Source of the DNA: Thermoleophilia bacterium
GTDB lineage: Bacteria; Actinomycetota; Thermoleophilia; Gaiellales; SKUG01
NCBI GenBank assembly: GCA_025964455.1
Contig: JAOPYU010000278.1
Span: 1 to 6,449 of the forward strand
DNA: 6,449 nt
Reading direction: 5' to 3'
The notes under the pieces are model-generated. The model had not been told where the DNA came from. It saw nothing but the letters and a program-made list of their open reading frames with translations, and ran no database searches. Both the position numbers and the translations under genes were made by a program. This document shows, piece after piece, positions 1 to 6,303 of the stretch (the first letter of the stretch is position 1; the number at the start of each line of letters is the position of its first letter).

Positions 1-678
1 AAGGCCGCCAAGGATTCCGCGACCACGCCGGAGGCCGCAGGGGCCATGCCCGCGCCCGTCGGTCCAATGGCGAACGTCATCGACGGACTCGCGATGTCCG
101 GCCCCGAGGTCGTCTTCGAGCCGTCGCCCGATGCCGATGCCACGCCGGCGCCCACCCGCACGCGCCTCGGACTGCTGGAGATCGTCGCGATCGTGCTGCT
201 CGCCGCACTGGCAGGCGTCGCGGGCTTCAAGGTGATGTCGACCAAGGGTGACCTGGCCGACGCGCCGGCCGCCACCCAGCAGGCCGTGCCGGCCGAGGTC
301 GCGCCCGTCGTGGCCCCGGTCACGCCCGCCACCCCCGCCAAGGCCCTCACACCGGCGCAGAAAAAGGCCGCCGCCGCGAAGGCCGCGGCACGCAGGAAGG
401 CTGCTGCCGCCAAGAAGGCAGCTACAGCCAAGAAGGCAGCCGCTGCGCCCGGCGCCGCACCCGGAGCAGGAACCACCCCGGCAGCCCCCGCAGCGGCGCC
501 GCCCGGCGGCCCGGTCGGCAACGGCGGTGCCTCCAGCGCCCTCGCCGATGCCGCGGGAACCGCAGCGTCATCAGCTCCGTCAGATACCGCAGGTGCTCAG
601 GATTCCGCCAGCGCTGCCGATGGAGCAGTCGTGACGGCGGCGGCCGCAGATGACACCAACCCGTTCGCCCGCCCGTGA
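1..678 (+). CDS. Single-pass membrane protein with Lys/Ala-rich (histone H1-like) tail, 5' end outside window
   Basis: The frame is open from base 1 with G/C-rich third positions, so the gene probably begins upstream. ATG 46, with GGAGG at 30-34, is an alternative start giving 210 aa; residue numbers below use it. One hydrophobic helix (about 43-63) follows an Arg-containing stretch. Beyond it comes a Pro/Ala/Val stretch, then a Lys/Ala tract (about 106-134) with repeated AAAKKA-type units like histone H1 or HU tails, then an Ala/Gly/Ser/Pro low-complexity region ending in DDTNPFARP. I recognise no enzymatic domain. By the positive-inside rule the topology is ambiguous, because basic residues flank both sides of the helix. 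The C-terminal NPF motif loosely recalls ends of some type IV pilus assembly proteins, but that is only a lead. The next open frame could overlap by GTGA, but I place the real start of that gene much further on. Function unknown. Confidence 0.7.
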   Translation, partial: KAAKDSATTPEAAGAMPAPVGPMANVIDGLAMSGPEVVFEPSPDADATPAPTRTRLGLLEIVAIVLLAALAGVAGFKVMSTKGDLADAPAATQQAVPAEVAPVVAPVTPATPAKALTPAQKKAAAAKAAARRKAAAAKKAATAKKAAAAPGAAPGAGTTPAAPAAAPPGGPVGNGGASSALADAAGTAASSAPSDTAGAQDSASAADGAVVTAAAADDTNPFARP

Positions 679-742
679 GGAACCCCATGCCTGACCAGAC
701 AGCCCACAACCGAGCGGGATGGCCTGCACCGCAGGTCGCTGC

Positions 743-748
743 TATGGT
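743..748 (+). promoter_or_regulatory. Candidate -10 box (TATGGT) upstream of the lipoprotein gene
   Basis: TATGGT in the context GCTATGGT lies in a gap with poor coding character. The same GCTA lead-in precedes two other candidate -10 boxes in the window, ahead of mnmA and the DUF948-type gene. I see no good -35. Transcription would start near 755 and leave about 130 bases of leader before the preferred start codon. This is pattern recognition only. Confidence 0.4.
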
Positions 749-754
749 GGAAGC

Positions 755-887
755 AGACCCGGTCCGGGACGGAGCGCAAACCGTCGAAGGGCCAACACTT
801 CACGATCGGGAGACCGAGTTCGGCCGCGGCCTTGCTTCGTTCGACAGGTCACCCACCTGCTTTGGCAGGTCCTCACGAGCGTCTGCG
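755..887 (+). other. Hairpin-rich 5' leader of the lipoprotein gene, no known RNA family recognised
   Basis: If transcription starts after the TATGGT box, this is untranslated leader. It holds several short self-complementary segments. CCCG/CGGG lies at 758-768. GACGG/CCGTC at 768-785 has loop AGCGCAAA. TCGG-GAGA-CCGA at 806-817 has a GNRA-type loop. ACCTGC-TTTG-GCAGGT lies at 855-870. Read as codons in the lipoprotein frame, 24 of the 71 codons from 675 to 887 end in A or T by hand count, far more than in the gene body, which argues against translation. I could not match it to a riboswitch or sRNA family. It may simply be GC-rich spacer. Confidence 0.3.
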
Positions 888-1733
888 TTGCGTGTCGGGC
901 CGGGTCCTTCTCTCTCCTCGCGACTTCGTCGCAGCGCCCTGCTGATCGGCGCACTCGCACTGCTCGCCACTGGCTGTGGTGGCGGCGATGACGCTGCGGC
1001 GGTCGACCCTGCAGCTACGGCAGCGGCAACCCCGACGACCGATGCGAACGGCGCGGTCGTCGGCGGAACCGGCACCGCTCCCGCGGCAGCCACCGGCGAC
1101 ACCGGCAGCACCCTCGGCGACGACACCGCCACGCCCGGCGCCAACGAGATCGCCGGTGCGAATGCCGCTGGCGGCTCGCCCGTCACCGTCACCGCGATCA
1201 CGCCCAAGAAGTTCGCCAAGGCGCACTGCATCAAGCCGATCATCGTCGTCTTCTACCAGCCGGGCTCGGTCGTCGACCAGCGCCTGTACGCGGAAGCAGC
1301 AGCCGCGGCGGCATCGGTGAAGGGCATCGTCTCGCTCACCTTCACGCCGAAGGACACGAAGCTCTACGGCGACCTGCCGGCCAAGCTCGGCCTGCTCTCG
1401 ACCCCCGGCCTGGCGGTCGTGGACCGGAGCGGCAAGCTCGAGAACTTCTGGGTGACCTACGTCGACCGCGCCCTGATCCGCCGTTCGCTCCAGAACGCCG
1501 CCGCTGCCAAGCCGTGCAAGGTCGCCACCGACGAGGCGCCCGCCGCCGGATCGGCGCTCTCTGATGCTGCACTCGTGGCCAACGGCGGGACGGTCGCCAA
1601 CACGACCGCCAACCCGCTCGCCGGCACGGAGCCCGGCACGGCCGCAGTCGATGCCGCAGGAGCACCTGCCTCGACGACCGGCTCGCCGGCGCTCGACACG
1701 GCAGCCGCCGGCGCCGTCGCCCCGACCACCTGA
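888..1733 (+). CDS. Lipoprotein with thioredoxin-like domain lacking the CxxC motif
   Basis: Starting at TTG 888 gives 281 aa with a clean lipoprotein signal: Arg-rich n-region (12-15), hydrophobic core (17-27) and lipobox LATGC with the lipidated Cys at 30. The frame stays open back to GTG 675, but that start would bury the signal peptide 70 residues in, and the extra stretch has poor coding character, so I chose TTG; its ribosome-binding site is weak. After an Ala/Thr/Gly linker (31-97), residues about 98-207 look thioredoxin-like: beta strand IIVVFYQP (118-125), helix, second strand VSLTFTP, then STPG (171-174), where thioredoxins carry the cis-proline, followed by strand LAVVD. The position of WCxxC reads GSVVD, so both redox cysteines are absent. 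Cys114 and Cys210 bracket the domain and could form a disulfide. The tail is Ala/Thr/Gly-rich. It probably sits on the outer face of the membrane as a binding or structural protein rather than an oxidoreductase. Confidence 0.75.
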   Translation: MRVGPGPSLSSRLRRSALLIGALALLATGCGGGDDAAAVDPAATAAATPTTDANGAVVGGTGTAPAAATGDTGSTLGDDTATPGANEIAGANAAGGSPVTVTAITPKKFAKAHCIKPIIVVFYQPGSVVDQRLYAEAAAAAASVKGIVSLTFTPKDTKLYGDLPAKLGLLSTPGLAVVDRSGKLENFWVTYVDRALIRRSLQNAAAAKPCKVATDEAPAAGSALSDAALVANGGTVANTTANPLAGTEPGTAAVDAAGAPASTTGSPALDTAAAGAVAPTT

Positions 1734-1772: not shown

Positions 1773-3341
1773 ATGCGCAGCCTGCAGGAACACCTGGATG
1801 CACCGAGCCTCGGCGACGGTTTCATGGACGACCCTGCGCTCGCATCGGCTGACGGCTGCGCGGGGGGCTCCTGTGGCGTGCTCGCGCACTATCGGCTCGA
1901 GGTCGACGCCGCGGGCGTGATCCGCGACTGCTCCGCCCGCATCCGTGGACGGGCCTCCGCATTCGCCACCGCCAGTGCCCTGTGCGAAGGCGCGCGCGGG
2001 CGCACCCTGCTCGAGGCATCGCGCCTCGGTATCGCCACGCTGCATCCGAGCTTCTCGCAGATGGACGAGGAGGACCTCGAGCGGGCGCTGGTCGCCGAGG
2101 ACGGGTTCCACCACGCGCTCGGTCGGTGGCTGCTCGAGCGCATGCACGATGCGCCGCGCGGCGTGGGCGCCGAGCGACCCGTGATCGCCGCCATCGACGC
2201 CGATGCGAATCGCCACGCGAGCGTCGTGGTCGGGATGAGCGGCGGCGTCGATTCGGCGGTCACGCTCCATCGCATGCTCGACGAACACGGGCCTTCGGTC
2301 GTGGGAGCGACCCTGCGACTGTGGATCGATCCGCTCGCGCCCGACCCCGAGGCCGCATGCTGCAGCCCGGATTCGGTGCGCCGCGCGCGCCACACGTGCC
2401 ACGCCGCGGGCGTCGGCCACCTCTCGATCGACCTGCGCGAATCCTTCGCGGCGAACGTGGTCGTCCCGTTCGTCAGCTCGTACGCGGGCGGGGAGACGCC
2501 CAACCCGTGCGTGCGCTGCAACGGGCGCTTTCGCCTTGACGAGCTCGTGCGCCTCGCCGACGTGCTCGGCGCCGAGCACGTCGCAACGGGCCACTACGCA
2601 CGCATCGTCGTGCGCGACGGCACGCACCTGATCGCCCGCGGCATCGATCGCAACAAGGACCAGTCCTACATGCTCGCCGAGGTCGCTCCGGCGACCACGG
2701 CCCGGCTGCGCTTCCCGCTCGGGGAGGAGCACAAGCCGAGCGTGCGCGCCGAGGCCGCGGAGCTCGGGCTCGCCCAGTCGACCGCCAAGGAGAGCCAGGA
2801 GGTCTGCTTCCTGGGCGGCGGTGACTACCGCCAGTTCCTGGAGCGCAGCCGTGCGCTCGGCCGCAGCGGCGAGATCGTGCTCGACCCCGGCGACGGCAGC
2901 GACCGCCGCACCGTCGGCACCCACGGCGGGGTCGCCCGCTTCACGCCCGGCCAGCGCCGCGGCATCGGCGTCGCCGCCGAATCGCCGCTCTACGTCCTCG
3001 ACGTCGATGCGCCCACCGGCCGCGTGCTCGTGGGACCGGCGGCGGCCGCAGCCACCTACCTCGATCGCACCGCCGTGAGGGTCGACGACATGCGCTGGCA
3101 CGACCCCCGCCCCCCCGAGCACGTTCGCGTGCAGCTGCGCTATCGCATGCGGGACGGCGCTGCCCCGGCGCGTGTGGAGCACGGTCGGGAAGCCGGCAGC
3201 GTGACTCTTCACCTCGATGAAGCGCGCCGCGCGCCCGCGCCGGGGCAGGTCGCCGTCATCTACGACGAGCACGACGTCGTGCTCGGCAGCGGACGGATTC
3301 GTCGGGAACCTGTGCTGGCGGACGCCCGACGCGACAGCTAG
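1773..3341 (+). CDS. mnmA: tRNA 2-thiouridine(34) synthase MnmA with N-terminal degenerate IscU/NifU-like domain
   Basis: MnmA adenylates U34 of Glu, Gln and Lys tRNAs and inserts sulfur from a persulfide relay. All hallmarks are present in this 522-aa protein: PP-loop GMSGGVDS (154-161), NPCVRCN with catalytic Cys246 (244-250), TGHYARI (272-278), DQSYML (296-301), EVCF with the second catalytic Cys345, GDYRQFL, and TPGQRRGIG (391-399) opening the C-terminal barrels. CCSPD (196-200) is typical of one MnmA subgroup. Usual MnmA is about 360-400 aa, so roughly 130 residues are extra. Residues about 27-125 align by eye with IscU/SufU: SCG (33-35), a beta segment ending VIRD, the GRASAFATAS helix start (59-68), GRTLLEA (76-82) and FHHALGRWLLERM (112-124). 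Only the first ligand Cys (34) is kept; the second is Arg60, the third His114, and the Asp is Val36. No cysteine desulfurase gene is in the window. ATG 1773 keeps the whole domain and fits the leaderless promoter. Confidence 0.93.
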   Translation: MRSLQEHLDAPSLGDGFMDDPALASADGCAGGSCGVLAHYRLEVDAAGVIRDCSARIRGRASAFATASALCEGARGRTLLEASRLGIATLHPSFSQMDEEDLERALVAEDGFHHALGRWLLERMHDAPRGVGAERPVIAAIDADANRHASVVVGMSGGVDSAVTLHRMLDEHGPSVVGATLRLWIDPLAPDPEAACCSPDSVRRARHTCHAAGVGHLSIDLRESFAANVVVPFVSSYAGGETPNPCVRCNGRFRLDELVRLADVLGAEHVATGHYARIVVRDGTHLIARGIDRNKDQSYMLAEVAPATTARLRFPLGEEHKPSVRAEAAELGLAQSTAKESQEVCFLGGGDYRQFLERSRALGRSGEIVLDPGDGSDRRTVGTHGGVARFTPGQRRGIGVAAESPLYVLDVDAPTGRVLVGPAAAAATYLDRTAVRVDDMRWHDPRPPEHVRVQLRYRMRDGAAPARVEHGREAGSVTLHLDEARRAPAPGQVAVIYDEHDVVLGSGRIRREPVLADARRDS

Positions 3342-3344: not shown

Positions 3345-3360
3345 CTCCGCCATAGAGGGT

Positions 3361-3368
3361 GGAGGAGG
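3361..3368 (+). promoter_or_regulatory. Strong Shine-Dalgarno sequence (GGAGGAGG) that fixes the start of the next gene
   Basis: GGAGGAGG sits 8 bases before GTG 3377. An in-frame GTG at 3359 lies upstream of this site and so cannot use it, which makes GTG 3377 the better start. This is the clearest ribosome-binding site in the window. Confidence 0.75.
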
Positions 3369-3376
3369 CAGCACCT

Positions 3377-3790
3377 GTGGACGGCGATACCGCGAAGGCG
3401 ATCATGTGGCTCGGCCTCGCGCTGCTCTTCGCGCTGCTCGGGGCCGGCCTCGGCTACGCCTTCTGGCGGCTCGGTCGCCTGCTGCGCGGCACCGAGCGTG
3501 AGCTGCACCGCACCGTCGACGAGGTCGTGCCGCTCATGGCCAAGGCCGGCGTGAGCATGGATCGCGTCAACGACCAGCTCGGCAAGGTCGACGTGATGAT
3601 GGACAGCGCGGTCGACATGGCCGAGGCGCTCGACAGCACCGTGCGCGCCGTCTCACATGCCGTCACCGAGCCGGTTCGGGCCGTCTCCACGACCGTCGCC
3701 GGCGCCGCGGAGGCCGCCCGCAGCTTCCGCGAGCGCATGTCCTCGGAGGAGGGGCCTGCGCCCGAATCTGCCGAAGGGGATGACTCGTGA
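3377..3790 (+). CDS. DUF948-type membrane-anchored coiled-coil protein
   Basis: This 137-aa protein has one N-terminal transmembrane helix (about 9-30) followed by RLGRLLRGTERELHRT and long amphipathic helices (about 33-120) with heptad-like spacing. The middle reads like DUF948 proteins: VDEVVPLM, then a segment of the type VNxQLGKVDVMMDSAVDMAEALDSTV. The tail is acidic (SSEEG...EGDDS). DUF948 proteins have no established activity; they resemble envelope-associated or methyl-accepting-type helical bundles. In many actinobacteria such a gene and a second small gene stand just before alaS; here mnmA lies upstream and a sigma module downstream. GTG 3377 was chosen for its strong ribosome-binding site. 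It overlaps the next gene by 4 bases (GTGA), which implies translational coupling. Confidence 0.8.
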   Translation: MDGDTAKAIMWLGLALLFALLGAGLGYAFWRLGRLLRGTERELHRTVDEVVPLMAKAGVSMDRVNDQLGKVDVMMDSAVDMAEALDSTVRAVSHAVTEPVRAVSTTVAGAAEAARSFRERMSSEEGPAPESAEGDDS

Positions 3791-4059
3791 GCACGCTACG
3801 TGGCATCATCGGCGCGGTGGTCGGCGCGACGGCAGCAGGAGTAGCACTGCGGGCGCGCTCGATCGCGAAGGAGCGCGGGCAGTCCCTGGGCGAGGTCGTC
3901 ACCGACCTTCCGGGAATTCTCGCGGAGGACATGACACGCATCAGCGATGCCGCGCGACACGCCGTCGACGACGGCAAGGCGGCATCGCGCGAGGCACGAA
4001 TCGATTTCGACGAGCAGGTTGCCGCCCGCAGCCGTCGAACCAAGGGGAACGATGGCTGA
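3787..4059 (+). CDS. Small hypothetical helical protein with N-terminal hydrophobic segment (DUF6167/YtxH-like)
   Basis: This 90-aa protein starts at GTG 3787, overlapping the previous stop by 4 bases, with AAGGGGA at 3774-3780 as ribosome-binding site. Residues about 5-22 form a Gly/Ala/Val hydrophobic segment (GIIGAVVGATAAGVALRAR), followed by a charged helical part rich in Arg, Asp and Ala (ISDAARHAVDDGKAASREAR). That architecture matches the small second protein often found between a DUF948 gene and alaS in actinobacteria, and YtxH-like proteins generally. Its position after the DUF948-type gene supports this. No function is known; it may partner the DUF948-type protein at the membrane. 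Its stop overlaps the next gene by 8 bases. Confidence 0.7.
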   Translation: MSTLRGIIGAVVGATAAGVALRARSIAKERGQSLGEVVTDLPGILAEDMTRISDAARHAVDDGKAASREARIDFDEQVAARSRRTKGNDG

Positions 4060-4474
4060 CTCTGTATCACTGAGCTTTCCGCGCGACTCGCGTTACTACG
4101 CGGTCGCACGCCTCGTGGTGGGTGGCATGGCCGCGCCGCTGCAGATGTCGTACGACGCGCTCGACGACCTGCAGCTCGCGATCTCCAGCCTGCTCGACCA
4201 CGAGGACCTTGCCACCGCCGGTGCCGGCGTCGGCGGCGCGCCCGGCGACGTGCGCCTGCGCCTCGAGGTGGACGAGCACCAGCTCGTCGCCGCGATCGGC
4301 AGCTTCGTGACCGGCAGCATCGATCGCGCATTCGAGCGATCCGCCCAGCAGGGTGGCGACCTCGGACTCCGTCGCCTGCTCGACACGATCGTCGACGACG
4401 TCACCGTGGACGGCGATGGTGACGGCGACGGCGAGTGGATCACGCTCACCAAGCACGTGAAGGCGATCGCCTGA
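4052..4474 (+). CDS. RsbW/SpoIIAB-like anti-sigma protein with degenerate ATP-binding boxes
   Basis: This 140-aa protein starts at ATG 4052 with AAGGGGA at 4042-4048, inside the end of the previous gene. Its length and order of elements match serine-kinase anti-sigma factors of the GHKL/Bergerat fold. The N-terminal strand and helix are FPRDSRYYAVARLVVGGMAA (9-28). The N-box helix is YDALDDLQLAISS (34-46). Strands LRLEVDEHQLVAAIG follow at 69-83, G2-like GGDLGLRRLLDTIVDDV at 101-117, and a final strand EWITLTKHV at 128-136. Against RsbW the N-box Glu aligns with Ser46 and Asn with His50, while DxGxG reads AIGSF, so Mg-ATP binding and kinase activity are probably lost. An acidic GD repeat (121-127) precedes the last strand. 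Its stop and the sigma factor's start share one base (TGATG), the arrangement expected of an anti-sigma/sigma pair. Alternatively it is a helper protein that merely keeps the fold. Confidence 0.65.
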   Translation: MADSVSLSFPRDSRYYAVARLVVGGMAAPLQMSYDALDDLQLAISSLLDHEDLATAGAGVGGAPGDVRLRLEVDEHQLVAAIGSFVTGSIDRAFERSAQQGGDLGLRRLLDTIVDDVTVDGDGDGDGEWITLTKHVKAIA

Positions 4475-5322
4475 TGAATCGTCGCCCAGAGGACATCATC
4501 GTCACGGCAGGCCTCGATCCCGCGATCCAGCAGGACATCGAGGAGAACCTGAACGAGCCGGTTCGTCGCCCCACGGCCGACGACAAGGTCGACCACCAGC
4601 TGCTCTACGCCTACCACCACGACGGCAGCATGAAGGCACGCGAGCAGCTCATCGAGCTGTACCTGCCGCTCGTGCGATCGCTGGCGCGCCGCTACTCCTA
4701 TCGCGGGGAGCAGCTCGAGGACCTCGTGCAGGTCGGCTGCATCGGCCTGATCAAGGCGATCGACCGCTTCGACATCGAGCGCGGGGTCGAGCTCACGACC
4801 TATGCGACGCCGAACATCATCGGCGAGATCAAGCGCCACTTCCGCGACAAGGGCTGGGCCGTGCGCGTGCCGCGTGGCCTGCAGGAGCTCAATGTCCGCC
4901 TCAGCAAGCTCATCGAGGAGCTGACGGTGCAGCTCGAGCGCTCCCCGACGATCGCGGAACTCGCCAAGGCGAGTGGCGCGACGGAGGAAGAGGTGCTCGA
5001 GGCGCTCGAGACCGGCCAGGCGTACTCGTCGGTCTCGCTGTCGTCCGGTCCGTCCGGCGGCGATGACGATGGCGACCTGGATCCGCTCGAGTCGCTCGGC
5101 TCGATCGAGGAGCAGTACGCGATCACCGAGGACCGCGCCGTACTGGCGCCGGGCTTCGCCGCACTCGATGACCGCGAGCGGTTCATCCTGCACCTGCGCT
5201 TCTTCGAGGGCCTCACGCAGTCGCAGATCGCGAGCCGCGTCGGAATTTCCCAGATGCACGTCTCGCGCCTCATCCGCCGCTCACTCCAGAAGATCAAGGA
5301 CGAGATCGGCACCGCGGAGTAG
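4474..5322 (+). CDS. RNA polymerase sigma factor, SigB/SigF/FliA-type (group 3)
   Basis: This 282-aa sigma-70-family protein directs RNA polymerase to an alternative promoter set, typically stress or developmental genes. Region 2 spans about 54-130: LIELYLPLVRSLARRY (59-74), EDLVQVGCIGLIKAIDRFD (82-100) for core binding, and LTTYATPNIIGEIKRHFRDKGW (107-128) for -10 recognition. VRVPRGLQEL (130-139) opens region 3, continuing to about 185. A Gly/Ser/Asp-rich linker (190-202) precedes region 4 (222-278), whose helix-turn-helix is LTQSQIASRVGISQMHVSRLIRR (247-269). The region 1.1 of housekeeping sigmas is absent, as usual for this group. A 40-residue N-terminal extension is present. ATG 4474 shares a base with the preceding stop, and the RsbW-like neighbour suggests partner-protein control; no anti-anti-sigma gene is in the window. 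SigB versus SigF cannot be decided from sequence alone. Confidence 0.93.
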   Translation: MNRRPEDIIVTAGLDPAIQQDIEENLNEPVRRPTADDKVDHQLLYAYHHDGSMKAREQLIELYLPLVRSLARRYSYRGEQLEDLVQVGCIGLIKAIDRFDIERGVELTTYATPNIIGEIKRHFRDKGWAVRVPRGLQELNVRLSKLIEELTVQLERSPTIAELAKASGATEEEVLEALETGQAYSSVSLSSGPSGGDDDGDLDPLESLGSIEEQYAITEDRAVLAPGFAALDDRERFILHLRFFEGLTQSQIASRVGISQMHVSRLIRRSLQKIKDEIGTAE

Positions 5323-5323
5323 C

Positions 5324-5869
5324 GTGCGTACCGGGCGGGCGGCACGAGGTCTGCGATGGGCCGTGCGTCCCGGTCTCGCGGCGCTGGTCACGATGTTCGT
5401 GCTGTCGGCACCGTTCGCGTTCGTGTTCGTGAACTCGGCGTTCCATGACGTGGTCGCAGACGGTCCGAATGACGACATCGGGTGGGCACTGGTCGCAAGG
5501 CATGTACTTACGATCGGTGTCGCGACCGCCGTGGCTGCTGGGGCGACCGTCGACCGTACTGGCCCGATCCGTCCCTGGAACGTGCTGGCGAGTGGAGCCT
5601 GTGCTGCGGCGTGCACGAGCCTCTGGTTCTGGTACTTCGACGGGTACTACCTCCCATGGCTGGCAAGCGTCACGGTGGTGATCGCGACGCTGCTGGGGGC
5701 CGCGATCGCCATTCGATTCGTCGCGCGGTTCGCGCTGCGTCGAGAACTCGTCGCGATCGTCGGGATCTGTACCGCGCTGCTGGCCGTGCTCCTGCTGGTG
5801 GATCGCATCGATCGCTCGTACCGGGCGTTCGACCTGGAGCGAATGAACGAGATCGGAATCGCGGAGTGA
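5324..5869 (+). CDS. Polytopic membrane protein of unknown family
   Basis: GTG 5324, one base after the sigma factor's stop and 4 bases after GGAG (5316-5319), gives 181 aa. A basic N-terminus (RTGRAARGLRWAVRPG) precedes hydrophobic segments at about 16-36, 56-74, 84-103, 110-131 and 141-160, so four or five membrane helices. An aromatic cluster (WFWYFDGYYLPW, 101-112) lies between the third and fourth segments, and the charged C-terminal tail (RIDRSYRAFDLERMNE) is probably cytoplasmic. I recognise no family or catalytic motif. Directly following the sigma gene, it could be a member of its regulon or sense envelope state, but that is speculation. The open frame continues upstream inside the sigma gene, which is an artefact of GC-rich sequence. 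It overlaps the next gene by 4 bases (GTGA). Confidence 0.75.
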   Translation: MRTGRAARGLRWAVRPGLAALVTMFVLSAPFAFVFVNSAFHDVVADGPNDDIGWALVARHVLTIGVATAVAAGATVDRTGPIRPWNVLASGACAAACTSLWFWYFDGYYLPWLASVTVVIATLLGAAIAIRFVARFALRRELVAIVGICTALLAVLLLVDRIDRSYRAFDLERMNEIGIAE

Positions 5870-6156
5870 CCGGAGAGACAGCCAATGCCGTCGTGGATCG
5901 GTTGGTCGATGCGCTCGTGCCTGAGACCGACCGCGCCCGGGTGCGCGCGGTCCTCGCGCAGCAGGCCGGGCCTGATGCACTCCGCATGCGCTCGGCGATC
6001 GTGCGCCTGTTCGCAGAGGGACGCATGCCGCTGGAGCAGGCGGCCACGCTCGCCCTCGTCAACCGTCGCGACCTGCTGACGGCTGCAGGGTTCAGCGAGG
6101 ATGTCGAATCGCATCGCGAGTGGGTCGACCGTGTGTTGGACCCCGGCGCCTCGTAA
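5866..6156 (+). CDS. Small helical protein with UPF0175-like segment
   Basis: GTG 5866 overlaps the previous stop by 4 bases and gives 96 aa, all predicted helical and soluble. Residues 45-76, from IVRLFAEGRMPLEQAA to RRDLLTAAGF, resemble the UPF0175 pattern (a growth/input step, then AAELAG, then a helix-turn-helix-like segment). UPF0175 proteins are small and often act as antitoxin-like DNA-binding partners. The match is by eye and partial, and no toxin gene lies beside it. Residues 1-44 hold two Arg/Asp-rich helices with no recognised family. It is the last gene of the operon; a 37-bp palindrome begins 8 bases after its stop. Alternatively it is a lineage-specific protein without DNA-binding function. 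Confidence 0.65.
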   Translation: MTGETANAVVDRLVDALVPETDRARVRAVLAQQAGPDALRMRSAIVRLFAEGRMPLEQAATLALVNRRDLLTAAGFSEDVESHREWVDRVLDPGAS

Positions 6157-6163
6157 GGGTCAC

Positions 6164-6200
6164 TGTGCAGAACCGATAACCCCTCGATCGTTTCTGTACA
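6164..6200 (+). repeat. 37-bp imperfect palindrome, copy 1
   Basis: Arms TGTGCAGAACCGAT and ATCGTTTCTGTACA are complementary at 12 of 14 positions around a 9-base spacer (AACCCCTCG). One of the two mismatches would be a G-U pair in RNA read from the plus strand. It begins 8 bases after the last operon stop and has no T-run, so it is not a classical rho-independent terminator, though the hairpin could stall polymerase or protect a 3' end. It is identical to copy 2 at 36 of 37 positions, at a distance of 72 bases. Confidence 0.85.
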
Positions 6201-6235
6201 GACGAGGGTGCCTGGTCGGTTCGCGGACCGTCAAA

Positions 6236-6272
6236 TGTGCAGAACCGATACCCCCTCGATCGTTTCTGTACA
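6236..6272 (+). repeat. 37-bp imperfect palindrome, copy 2
   Basis: The same element as copy 1, with C instead of A at the fifteenth base (6251), which lies at the start of the spacer, so both arms are fully conserved. It ends 31 bases before the stop codon of the convergent minus-strand gene. Together the pair fills most of the gap between convergent genes, like REP/BIME-type intergenic elements. Confidence 0.85.
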
Positions 6273-6303
6273 TGGAGGAGGGCCGCGGCCTGCCCGGTCA
6301 ACA

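What the first reader, a model, noticed from the sequence alone, without database searches (positions are those of the whole stretch)
1773..2222. MnmA fused to an IscU/NifU-like scaffold that has lost most of its Fe-S ligands
About 130 residues before the MnmA PP-loop align by eye with IscU/SufU. The first ligand Cys (34) is kept, but the other conserved ligands read Val36 (Asp), Arg60 (Cys) and His114 (Cys, next to the conserved-type His113). The scaffold therefore probably cannot assemble a normal cluster. Because IscU binds the cysteine desulfurase, the domain may instead be a docking module that brings the desulfurase to MnmA, with Cys34 as a possible persulfide relay in place of TusA/TusE-type carriers, none of which is seen here. 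Family motifs are established knowledge; the role is inference.
Basis: partly seen in the sequence, partly recalled or inferred. Interest (0 to 1): 0.72.

Follow-up and report, generated by a model that had tools for sequence, protein, structure and literature searches.

The report
MnmA fused to metal-site-less IscU domain
A bacterial enzyme that puts sulfur on transfer RNA carries, fused in front of it, a relative of an iron-sulfur scaffold protein that has lost nearly all its metal-binding residues but kept one reactive cysteine unchanged, which may make it a built-in sulfur-delivery arm.

The parts
1773..3341 (+). Gene for the fused protein, 522 aa: IscU/NifU_N-like domain + CxxC-C type MnmA
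1773..2147 (+). IscU-like domain (residues 1-125), with N-terminal helix 4-9, hairpin 26-44, strand 49-58, helix 61-74 and last helix 99-125
1857..1859 (+). Cys29, invariant in 34 of 34 clade members; Cys in 0 of 302 other fused rows (6 of them gaps)
1872..1874 (+). Cys34 = first IscU/SufU Cys, in the hairpin loop; Cys in 34 of 34 clade rows and in all 296 other fused rows that cover it
1878..1880 (+). Val36 in place of the conserved Asp ligand (V 32, A 1, D 1 of 34)
1950..1952 (+). Arg60 in place of the second Cys ligand (R 33, Q 1 of 34)
2073..2084 (+). Asp101-Leu102-Glu103-Arg104 in place of Lys-x-His-Cys of IscU (docking Lys, His ligand, third Cys)
2133..2213 (+). Variable linker between the two domains (residues 121-147; 42% mean pairwise identity in the clade)
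2220..3299 (+). MnmA: PP-loop (HUP), PRC-barrel-like and C-terminal domains (residues 150-509)
2508..2519 (+). C246-x-x-C249 of the CxxC-C type MnmA active site, in 34 of 34 clade members
2805..2807 (+). C345, third Cys of the CxxC-C site (equivalent of E. coli Cys199 by motif; equivalence recalled)

Best explanation
The protein belongs to a large family of IscU-MnmA fusions of Actinomycetota that I did not find described, and its clade is one in which the fused IscU domain has given up the ligands for metal and cluster binding. Shown: the fold (by model), the fusion, the loss of four of five ligands, the invariance of C34 and C29, the strength of constraint on the domain, and the gene order desulfurase-IscU-MnmA in some relatives. 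Inferred: a cysteine desulfurase (type not known) passes persulfide to C34 on the hairpin loop, as SufS does to the equivalent Cys of SufU; C34, perhaps with C29 as a partner that releases the sulfur by forming a disulfide, hands it in cis to the CxxC-C site of MnmA, whose [4Fe-4S] cluster or Cys345 uses it for s2U34. The Arg/Glu residues that replaced the ligands (R60, E103, R104, with R58 nearby) would hold the thiolate or persulfide instead of a metal.
For: C34 kept in 34 of 34 clade rows and 296 of 302 other fused rows, 6 gaps. C29 34 of 34 in the clade, 0 of 302 elsewhere. NifU core 75% mean pairwise identity in the clade, equal to the PP-loop domain (75%) and above residues 349-509 (58%), so it is not decaying. 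The equivalent Cys accepts persulfide in SufU (PMC10216065, PMC11021402, passages), and a structure titled persulfurated B. subtilis SufU is among the fold matches (6jzw). iscS-iscU-mnmA gene rows with full-ligand IscU in two Clostridia loci and in 4 genomes of the same class; the two closest four-ligand fusions, L241 and L252, have a NifS/IscS-like desulfurase gene directly upstream on the same strand. All 34 clade MnmAs are CxxC-C type, a type shown in T. thermophilus to carry a [4Fe-4S] cluster (PMC8584467, passage). G003, G091 and G023, all with fusions, gave no TusA and no DsrC match.
Against: No experiment. The basic residue used by IscU to bind IscS is Asp/Glu in 32 of 34 clade rows. 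In SufU zinc is important for the transfer (PMC10216065), and this clade has lost those ligands. In human ISCU2 the acceptor is the third Cys and the first was not essential for it (PMC11021402); for SufU of E. faecalis Cys128 was proposed (PMC10216065). A neighbouring clade lives with a mini-domain without a conserved Cys. MnmA can be fed without any carrier (YrvO in B. subtilis; PMC11784392, passage). Two genomes with the fusion, G004 and G117, also have TusA and DsrC. The distance from C34 to the MnmA active site could not be measured (no coordinates given). No desulfurase gene was recognised in the window.
Confidence: 0.45

Rival explanations
1. Docking or structural module without sulfur chemistry: the domain recruits a desulfurase or other partner, or stabilises MnmA or its tRNA binding; C34 is kept for structural or historical reasons.
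For: A conserved mini-domain (64% mean pairwise identity over 33 rows) without a conserved Cys persists in a neighbouring clade, so the fused domain can be useful without the Cys. IscU is a known desulfurase-binding protein (PMC2854127, passage). The clade has an invariant or nearly invariant Arg-rich stretch R56/R58/R60 near C34, which could touch RNA.
Against: Complete invariance of C29 and C34 in 34 sequences while the other ligands were lost; the IscU docking Lys is reversed.
Confidence: 0.27
2. Redox switch: C29 and C34 form a disulfide that turns the oxygen-sensitive [4Fe-4S] MnmA on or off.
For: The invariant CAGGSC pair in one hairpin; many fusions of another group have a vicinal Cys pair at the same place (Cys at position 35 in 64 of 302 rows).
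Against: C34 is kept also in fusions without C29 or C35, which points to an older role of C34 alone.
Confidence: 0.1
3. Scaffold or carrier that still builds or delivers an Fe-S cluster to the MnmA active site, with C29, C34 and new ligands such as H91 or E103.
For: The MnmA part is of the cluster-dependent type; C29, C34, H91, H113 are invariant in the clade.
Against: Four of five IscU ligands are gone; Asp71 and Cys95 of ISCU2, both lost here, were essential for persulfidation (PMC11021402, passage); in the four genomes G003-G006 with a fusion or part of one, a separate SufU-like gene is encoded elsewhere, so a scaffold protein need not be this one.
Confidence: 0.1
4. Vestige of a once useful fusion, on its way to being lost.
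For: Graded loss of ligands and, in a neighbouring clade, of whole helices.
Against: The domain core is as conserved as the catalytic domain in the clade, which decay would not give.
Confidence: 0.05

Closest known systems
IscU / NifU N-terminal scaffold domain (PF01592, TIGR01999)
   Different: Asp, Cys2, His, Cys3 and the IscS-docking Lys are replaced; fused to MnmA; new invariant C29
SufU (Zn-dependent sulfurtransferase of SufS)
   Different: No metal ligand but the Cys left in this clade; closer to IscU than to SufU by fold score and by family hits
CxxC-C ('ancient') type MnmA, e.g. of Thermus thermophilus
   Same: MnmA equivalog above cut-off (NF001138 313 bits against 284); CxxC and third Cys present
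   Different: Carries the extra IscU-like domain
YrvO-MnmA of Bacillus subtilis and desulfurase-mnmA gene pairs
   Same: Desulfurase tied to MnmA without a Tus chain
   Different: There the desulfurase passes sulfur straight to MnmA (PMC11784392, passage); here an IscU domain is built in
TusA/TusBCD/TusE relay and ThiI rhodanese domain of E. coli
   Same: Works like it if the relay reading holds: a Cys carrier between desulfurase and PP-loop enzyme, in ThiI also fused
   Different: Unrelated folds (recalled)

Membership tests
MnmA (tRNA-uridine 2-sulfurtransferase) | Whole-protein score over the equivalog cut-off | tested here: met
   NF001138 313.4 bits (cut-off 284), TIGR00420 255.3 (236.95)
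MnmA (tRNA-uridine 2-sulfurtransferase) | PP-loop SGGxDS | tested here: met
   SGGVDS at residues 156-161, invariant in A1
CxxC-C (Fe-S dependent) MnmA | CxxC plus third Cys in the active site | tested here: met
   34 of 34 clade rows and 114 of 114 other fused rows by pattern
CxxC-C (Fe-S dependent) MnmA | [4Fe-4S] cluster needed for activity | not testable with these tools
   Shown for T. thermophilus MnmA (PMC8584467, passage), not for this protein
NifU_N domain (PF01592) | Score at or over Pfam gathering threshold | tested here: met
   25.5 bits on residues 1-150, 22.0 on the whole protein, cut-off 22
IscU scaffold (functional) | Three Cys, Asp and His of the assembly site | tested here: not met
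   Only C34 kept; V36, R60, E103, R104
IscU scaffold (functional) | Score over the IscU equivalog cut-off (TIGR01999) | tested here: not met
   25.2 bits against 192.4
SufU | Zn ligands Asp, Cys2 and a further Cys beside the first Cys | tested here: not met
   V36, R60, R104
SufU | Presence of the first Cys, which accepts persulfide | tested here: met
   C34 present and invariant; whether it is persulfidated was not testable
Persulfide carrier for MnmA (TusE-like role) | Takes sulfur from a desulfurase and gives it to MnmA | not testable with these tools
   Inference from conservation and gene order only

The most novel reading that the evidence does not exclude
An IscU-fold domain has been turned, after fusion, from an iron-sulfur scaffold into a metal-free dithiol (C29/C34) persulfide arm dedicated to tRNA thiolation, replacing the Tus relay and feeding the [4Fe-4S]-type MnmA in cis; relatives in one bacterial class still show the likely stages, from separate iscS-iscU-mnmA genes through four-ligand fusions to this one-ligand form and, on another branch, a mini-domain without a conserved Cys.
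Probability: 0.35. Interest if true: 0.78.

Novelty: new variant of a known kind. Interest (0 to 1): 0.6.

Why it matters
How sulfur reaches MnmA where Tus proteins are absent, and how CxxC-C MnmA uses its cluster, are open (PMC8584467: unclear how the T. thermophilus cluster catalyses transfer; PMC11784392 reviews the open mechanism in E. coli; passages). A family with a likely sulfur acceptor fused to the enzyme makes both testable with one polypeptide and one desulfurase. The graded series may also show which IscU residues serve sulfur acceptance as opposed to cluster assembly, a point on which IscU and SufU differ (third against first Cys).

Tried and rejected
Rejected: that the fusion is a rarity of this window. 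Rejected as a general rule: that every fused domain has lost its ligands; the 302 other rows keep Cys2 in 302 and Asp in 296. First taken for fusions, then seen to be separate neighbouring genes: L047 and L059 of Clostridia. First taken for unfused MnmA: L001 and L002, which carry the mini-domain. The mini-domain is linked to the fused NifU domains by profile comparison (hhalign probability 95.6 against the other fusions, but only 9.2 against the window's clade) and by secondary structure of its model; the structure comparison of that model listed no IscU chain among its 50 rows, so its descent is likely, not proven. Desulfurases: in G023 and G091 only one PF00266 match passes E 1e-40, but weaker ones were not listed, so 'sole desulfurase' is not claimed. 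Papers: none describing the fusion was found in the searches over an open-access library; most subscription papers are not in it. Read as passages only: PMC8584467, PMC11784392, PMC10216065, PMC11021402, PMC2854127, PMC8300815. Nothing seen of the T. thermophilus MnmA paper itself (look-up failed).

Full report

Ligands. In the alignment to IscU and in an alignment of 338 rows, IscU's Cys1, Asp, Cys2, His, Cys3 correspond to C34, V36, R60, E103, R104. Only C34 is left. Position 101, the Lys that E. coli IscU needs to bind IscS (K103E abolished binding; PMC2854127, passage), is Asp.

The clade. A protein search with residues 1-150 found 33 relatives among 3271 candidates at E<=1e-3; the three with an organism name are Thermoleophilia MAGs. 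In the 34-row alignment C29-A-G-G-S-C34-G is invariant, as are R56, R58, G59, H91, E103, E109, D110 and H113; R60 is R in 33. NifU_N is matched in 34 of 34 at E<=1. Mean pairwise identity is 75% for residues 27-120, 75% for the PP-loop domain, 58% for residues 349-509, 42% for the linker and 47% for residues 1-26. So the domain is held as tightly as the catalytic part.

The family. Two relatives in named genomes, L003 (Solirubrobacterales) and L004 (Actinobacteria), carry the same fusion with a better kept site. Searches with two such N-domains gave 2321 and 123 proteins at E<=1e-3 (120 listed each); the listed ones nearly all carry MnmA and NifU_N Pfam domains. L003 belongs to an order of the class Thermoleophilia. 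In 199 genomes of its class, NifU_N is found in 197 and MnmA in 187. Of 90 loci inspected, 83 have a frame with the MnmA PP-loop, of which 81, from 81 genomes, were kept; with L241 and L252 at least 83 of 199 genomes carry the fusion. In 396 genomes of the phylum, 12 of 20 fetched loci are fusions by pattern, and L304 and L307 also by eye; their class is not told. Counts over 302 other fused rows (291 distinct): Cys1 296 (6 gaps), Asp 296 (5 gaps, 1 Gly), Cys2 302, His 296, Cys3 5; the clade of the window: Cys1 34, Asp 1, Cys2 0, His 0, Cys3 0 of 34. Thus most of these fusions keep Cys1-Asp-Cys2-His, the set that binds iron in free human ISCU2 (PMC11021402, passage), and lack Cys3, the persulfide acceptor of ISCU2; a few keep Cys3 and lack the His. 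The clade of the window keeps Cys1 alone, which in SufU is the acceptor; one member, P0034, also has the Asp.

Relatives in order. A FastTree tree of 184 MnmA domains puts the window's 34 rows in one clade (support 100) beside a group (90) of two fusions, L241 and L252, and 34 rows with a mini-domain (98); the whole set of 70 has support 96. L241 and L252 keep, by eye, Cys1, Asp, Cys2 and Cys3. The mini-domain is about 70 residues; 26 of 33 have no Cys in it, the others one each in seven different columns. Its model shows three strands and the last helix, the helix of Cys2 being absent. If the branch of support 90 is right, ligand loss in the window's clade and in the mini clade happened separately. 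The place of the separate-gene genomes L253-L256 inside the fusions (support 89) leaves open whether fusion came once with later splitting, or more than once.

Gene order. In two Clostridia loci (L047, L059) an Rrf2/IscR-like gene (by eye), iscS, an IscU with all ligands, and mnmA lie in a row. The order iscS-iscU-mnmA, with separate genes and full-ligand IscU, is seen in four genomes of the class sample, L253-L256. Directly upstream of the fused genes of L241 and L252 lies a class V aminotransferase gene scoring best against the NifS desulfurase model, below its cut-off. These are links between desulfurase, IscU and MnmA. In 20 genomes examined, TusA was found in 11 and DsrC (TusE family) in 7, 6 over the cut-off; G003, G091 and G023, with fusions, had neither; G004 and G117, with fusions, had both.

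How it most likely works. All 34 MnmA parts are of the CxxC-C type, for which a [4Fe-4S] cluster was shown in Thermus thermophilus and the way it acts is unclear (PMC8584467, passage). I infer that C34 receives persulfide from a desulfurase and passes it in cis to MnmA. The change of Asp, Cys2, His, Cys3 to Val, Arg, Glu, Arg would remove the metal and could hold a thiolate. C29 could resolve the persulfide as a disulfide; a vicinal Cys at position 35 in 64 of 302 other fused rows suggests that a second thiol near Cys1 arose more than once. The steps from desulfurase to C34 and from C34 to MnmA are not shown.

Against. The reversed charge at position 101 argues against classical IscU-IscS docking in this clade; SufS or a co-evolved IscS is possible. 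Zinc is important for transfer in SufU, and its ligands are gone here. In ISCU2 the first Cys was not essential for sulfur acceptance, and for E. faecalis SufU another Cys was proposed. The mini-domain shows that part of the family does without a conserved Cys. Direct transfer from desulfurase to MnmA is known in B. subtilis (PMC11784392, passage). The window's genome is not held.

Novelty. Databases show the domain pair (Pfam columns), yet the source names shown for these proteins are plain MnmA or tRNA 2-thiouridylase/sulfurtransferase. Searches of an open-access library found no paper that describes the fusion; most subscription papers are absent from it. I rate it a new variant of a known kind.

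Noticed in passing
L217-L251 (33 loci), L001:9776-11026, L002:9776-10933: MnmA with a conserved ~70-residue N-terminal mini-domain, apparently an IscU domain that lost the Cys2 helix and the conserved cysteines; function unknown.
   Followed up: partly
L294-L304, L306, L307, L312: IscU-MnmA fusions with (A/S)CGD, GCAAC and mostly EHA/GHA motifs in genomes elsewhere in the phylum; their class is not told.
   Followed up: partly
P0035-P0156 group, position 35 of the window protein: 64 of 302 other fused rows (63 of them in the P0035 search group) have a vicinal Cys pair (CC) in place of CG at the first ligand.
   Followed up: partly
window 4052-5322: RsbW-like anti-sigma factor (below cut-off) followed by a SigB/SigF/SigG-family sigma factor downstream of the MnmA gene, suggesting a stress operon next door.
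   Followed up: partly
window 675-1733 and 3359-3790; L004:2995-4113 and 5644-6183: By eye, similar secreted, possibly thioredoxin-like proteins upstream and DUF948-like proteins downstream of the fused gene in both; the upstream one of the window has no Pfam match and the DUF948 match is below its cut-off.
   Followed up: partly
window about 6164-6275: Two nearly identical copies of a ~37-base element (tgtgcagaaccgata..ccctcgatcgtttctgtaca) with inverted-repeat ends, seen by eye, between gene ends.
   Followed up: no
PMC10216065, section 3.7: The text names Cys31 as a zinc ligand of SufU but Cys131 in the interface list; one of them looks like a misprint.
   Followed up: no
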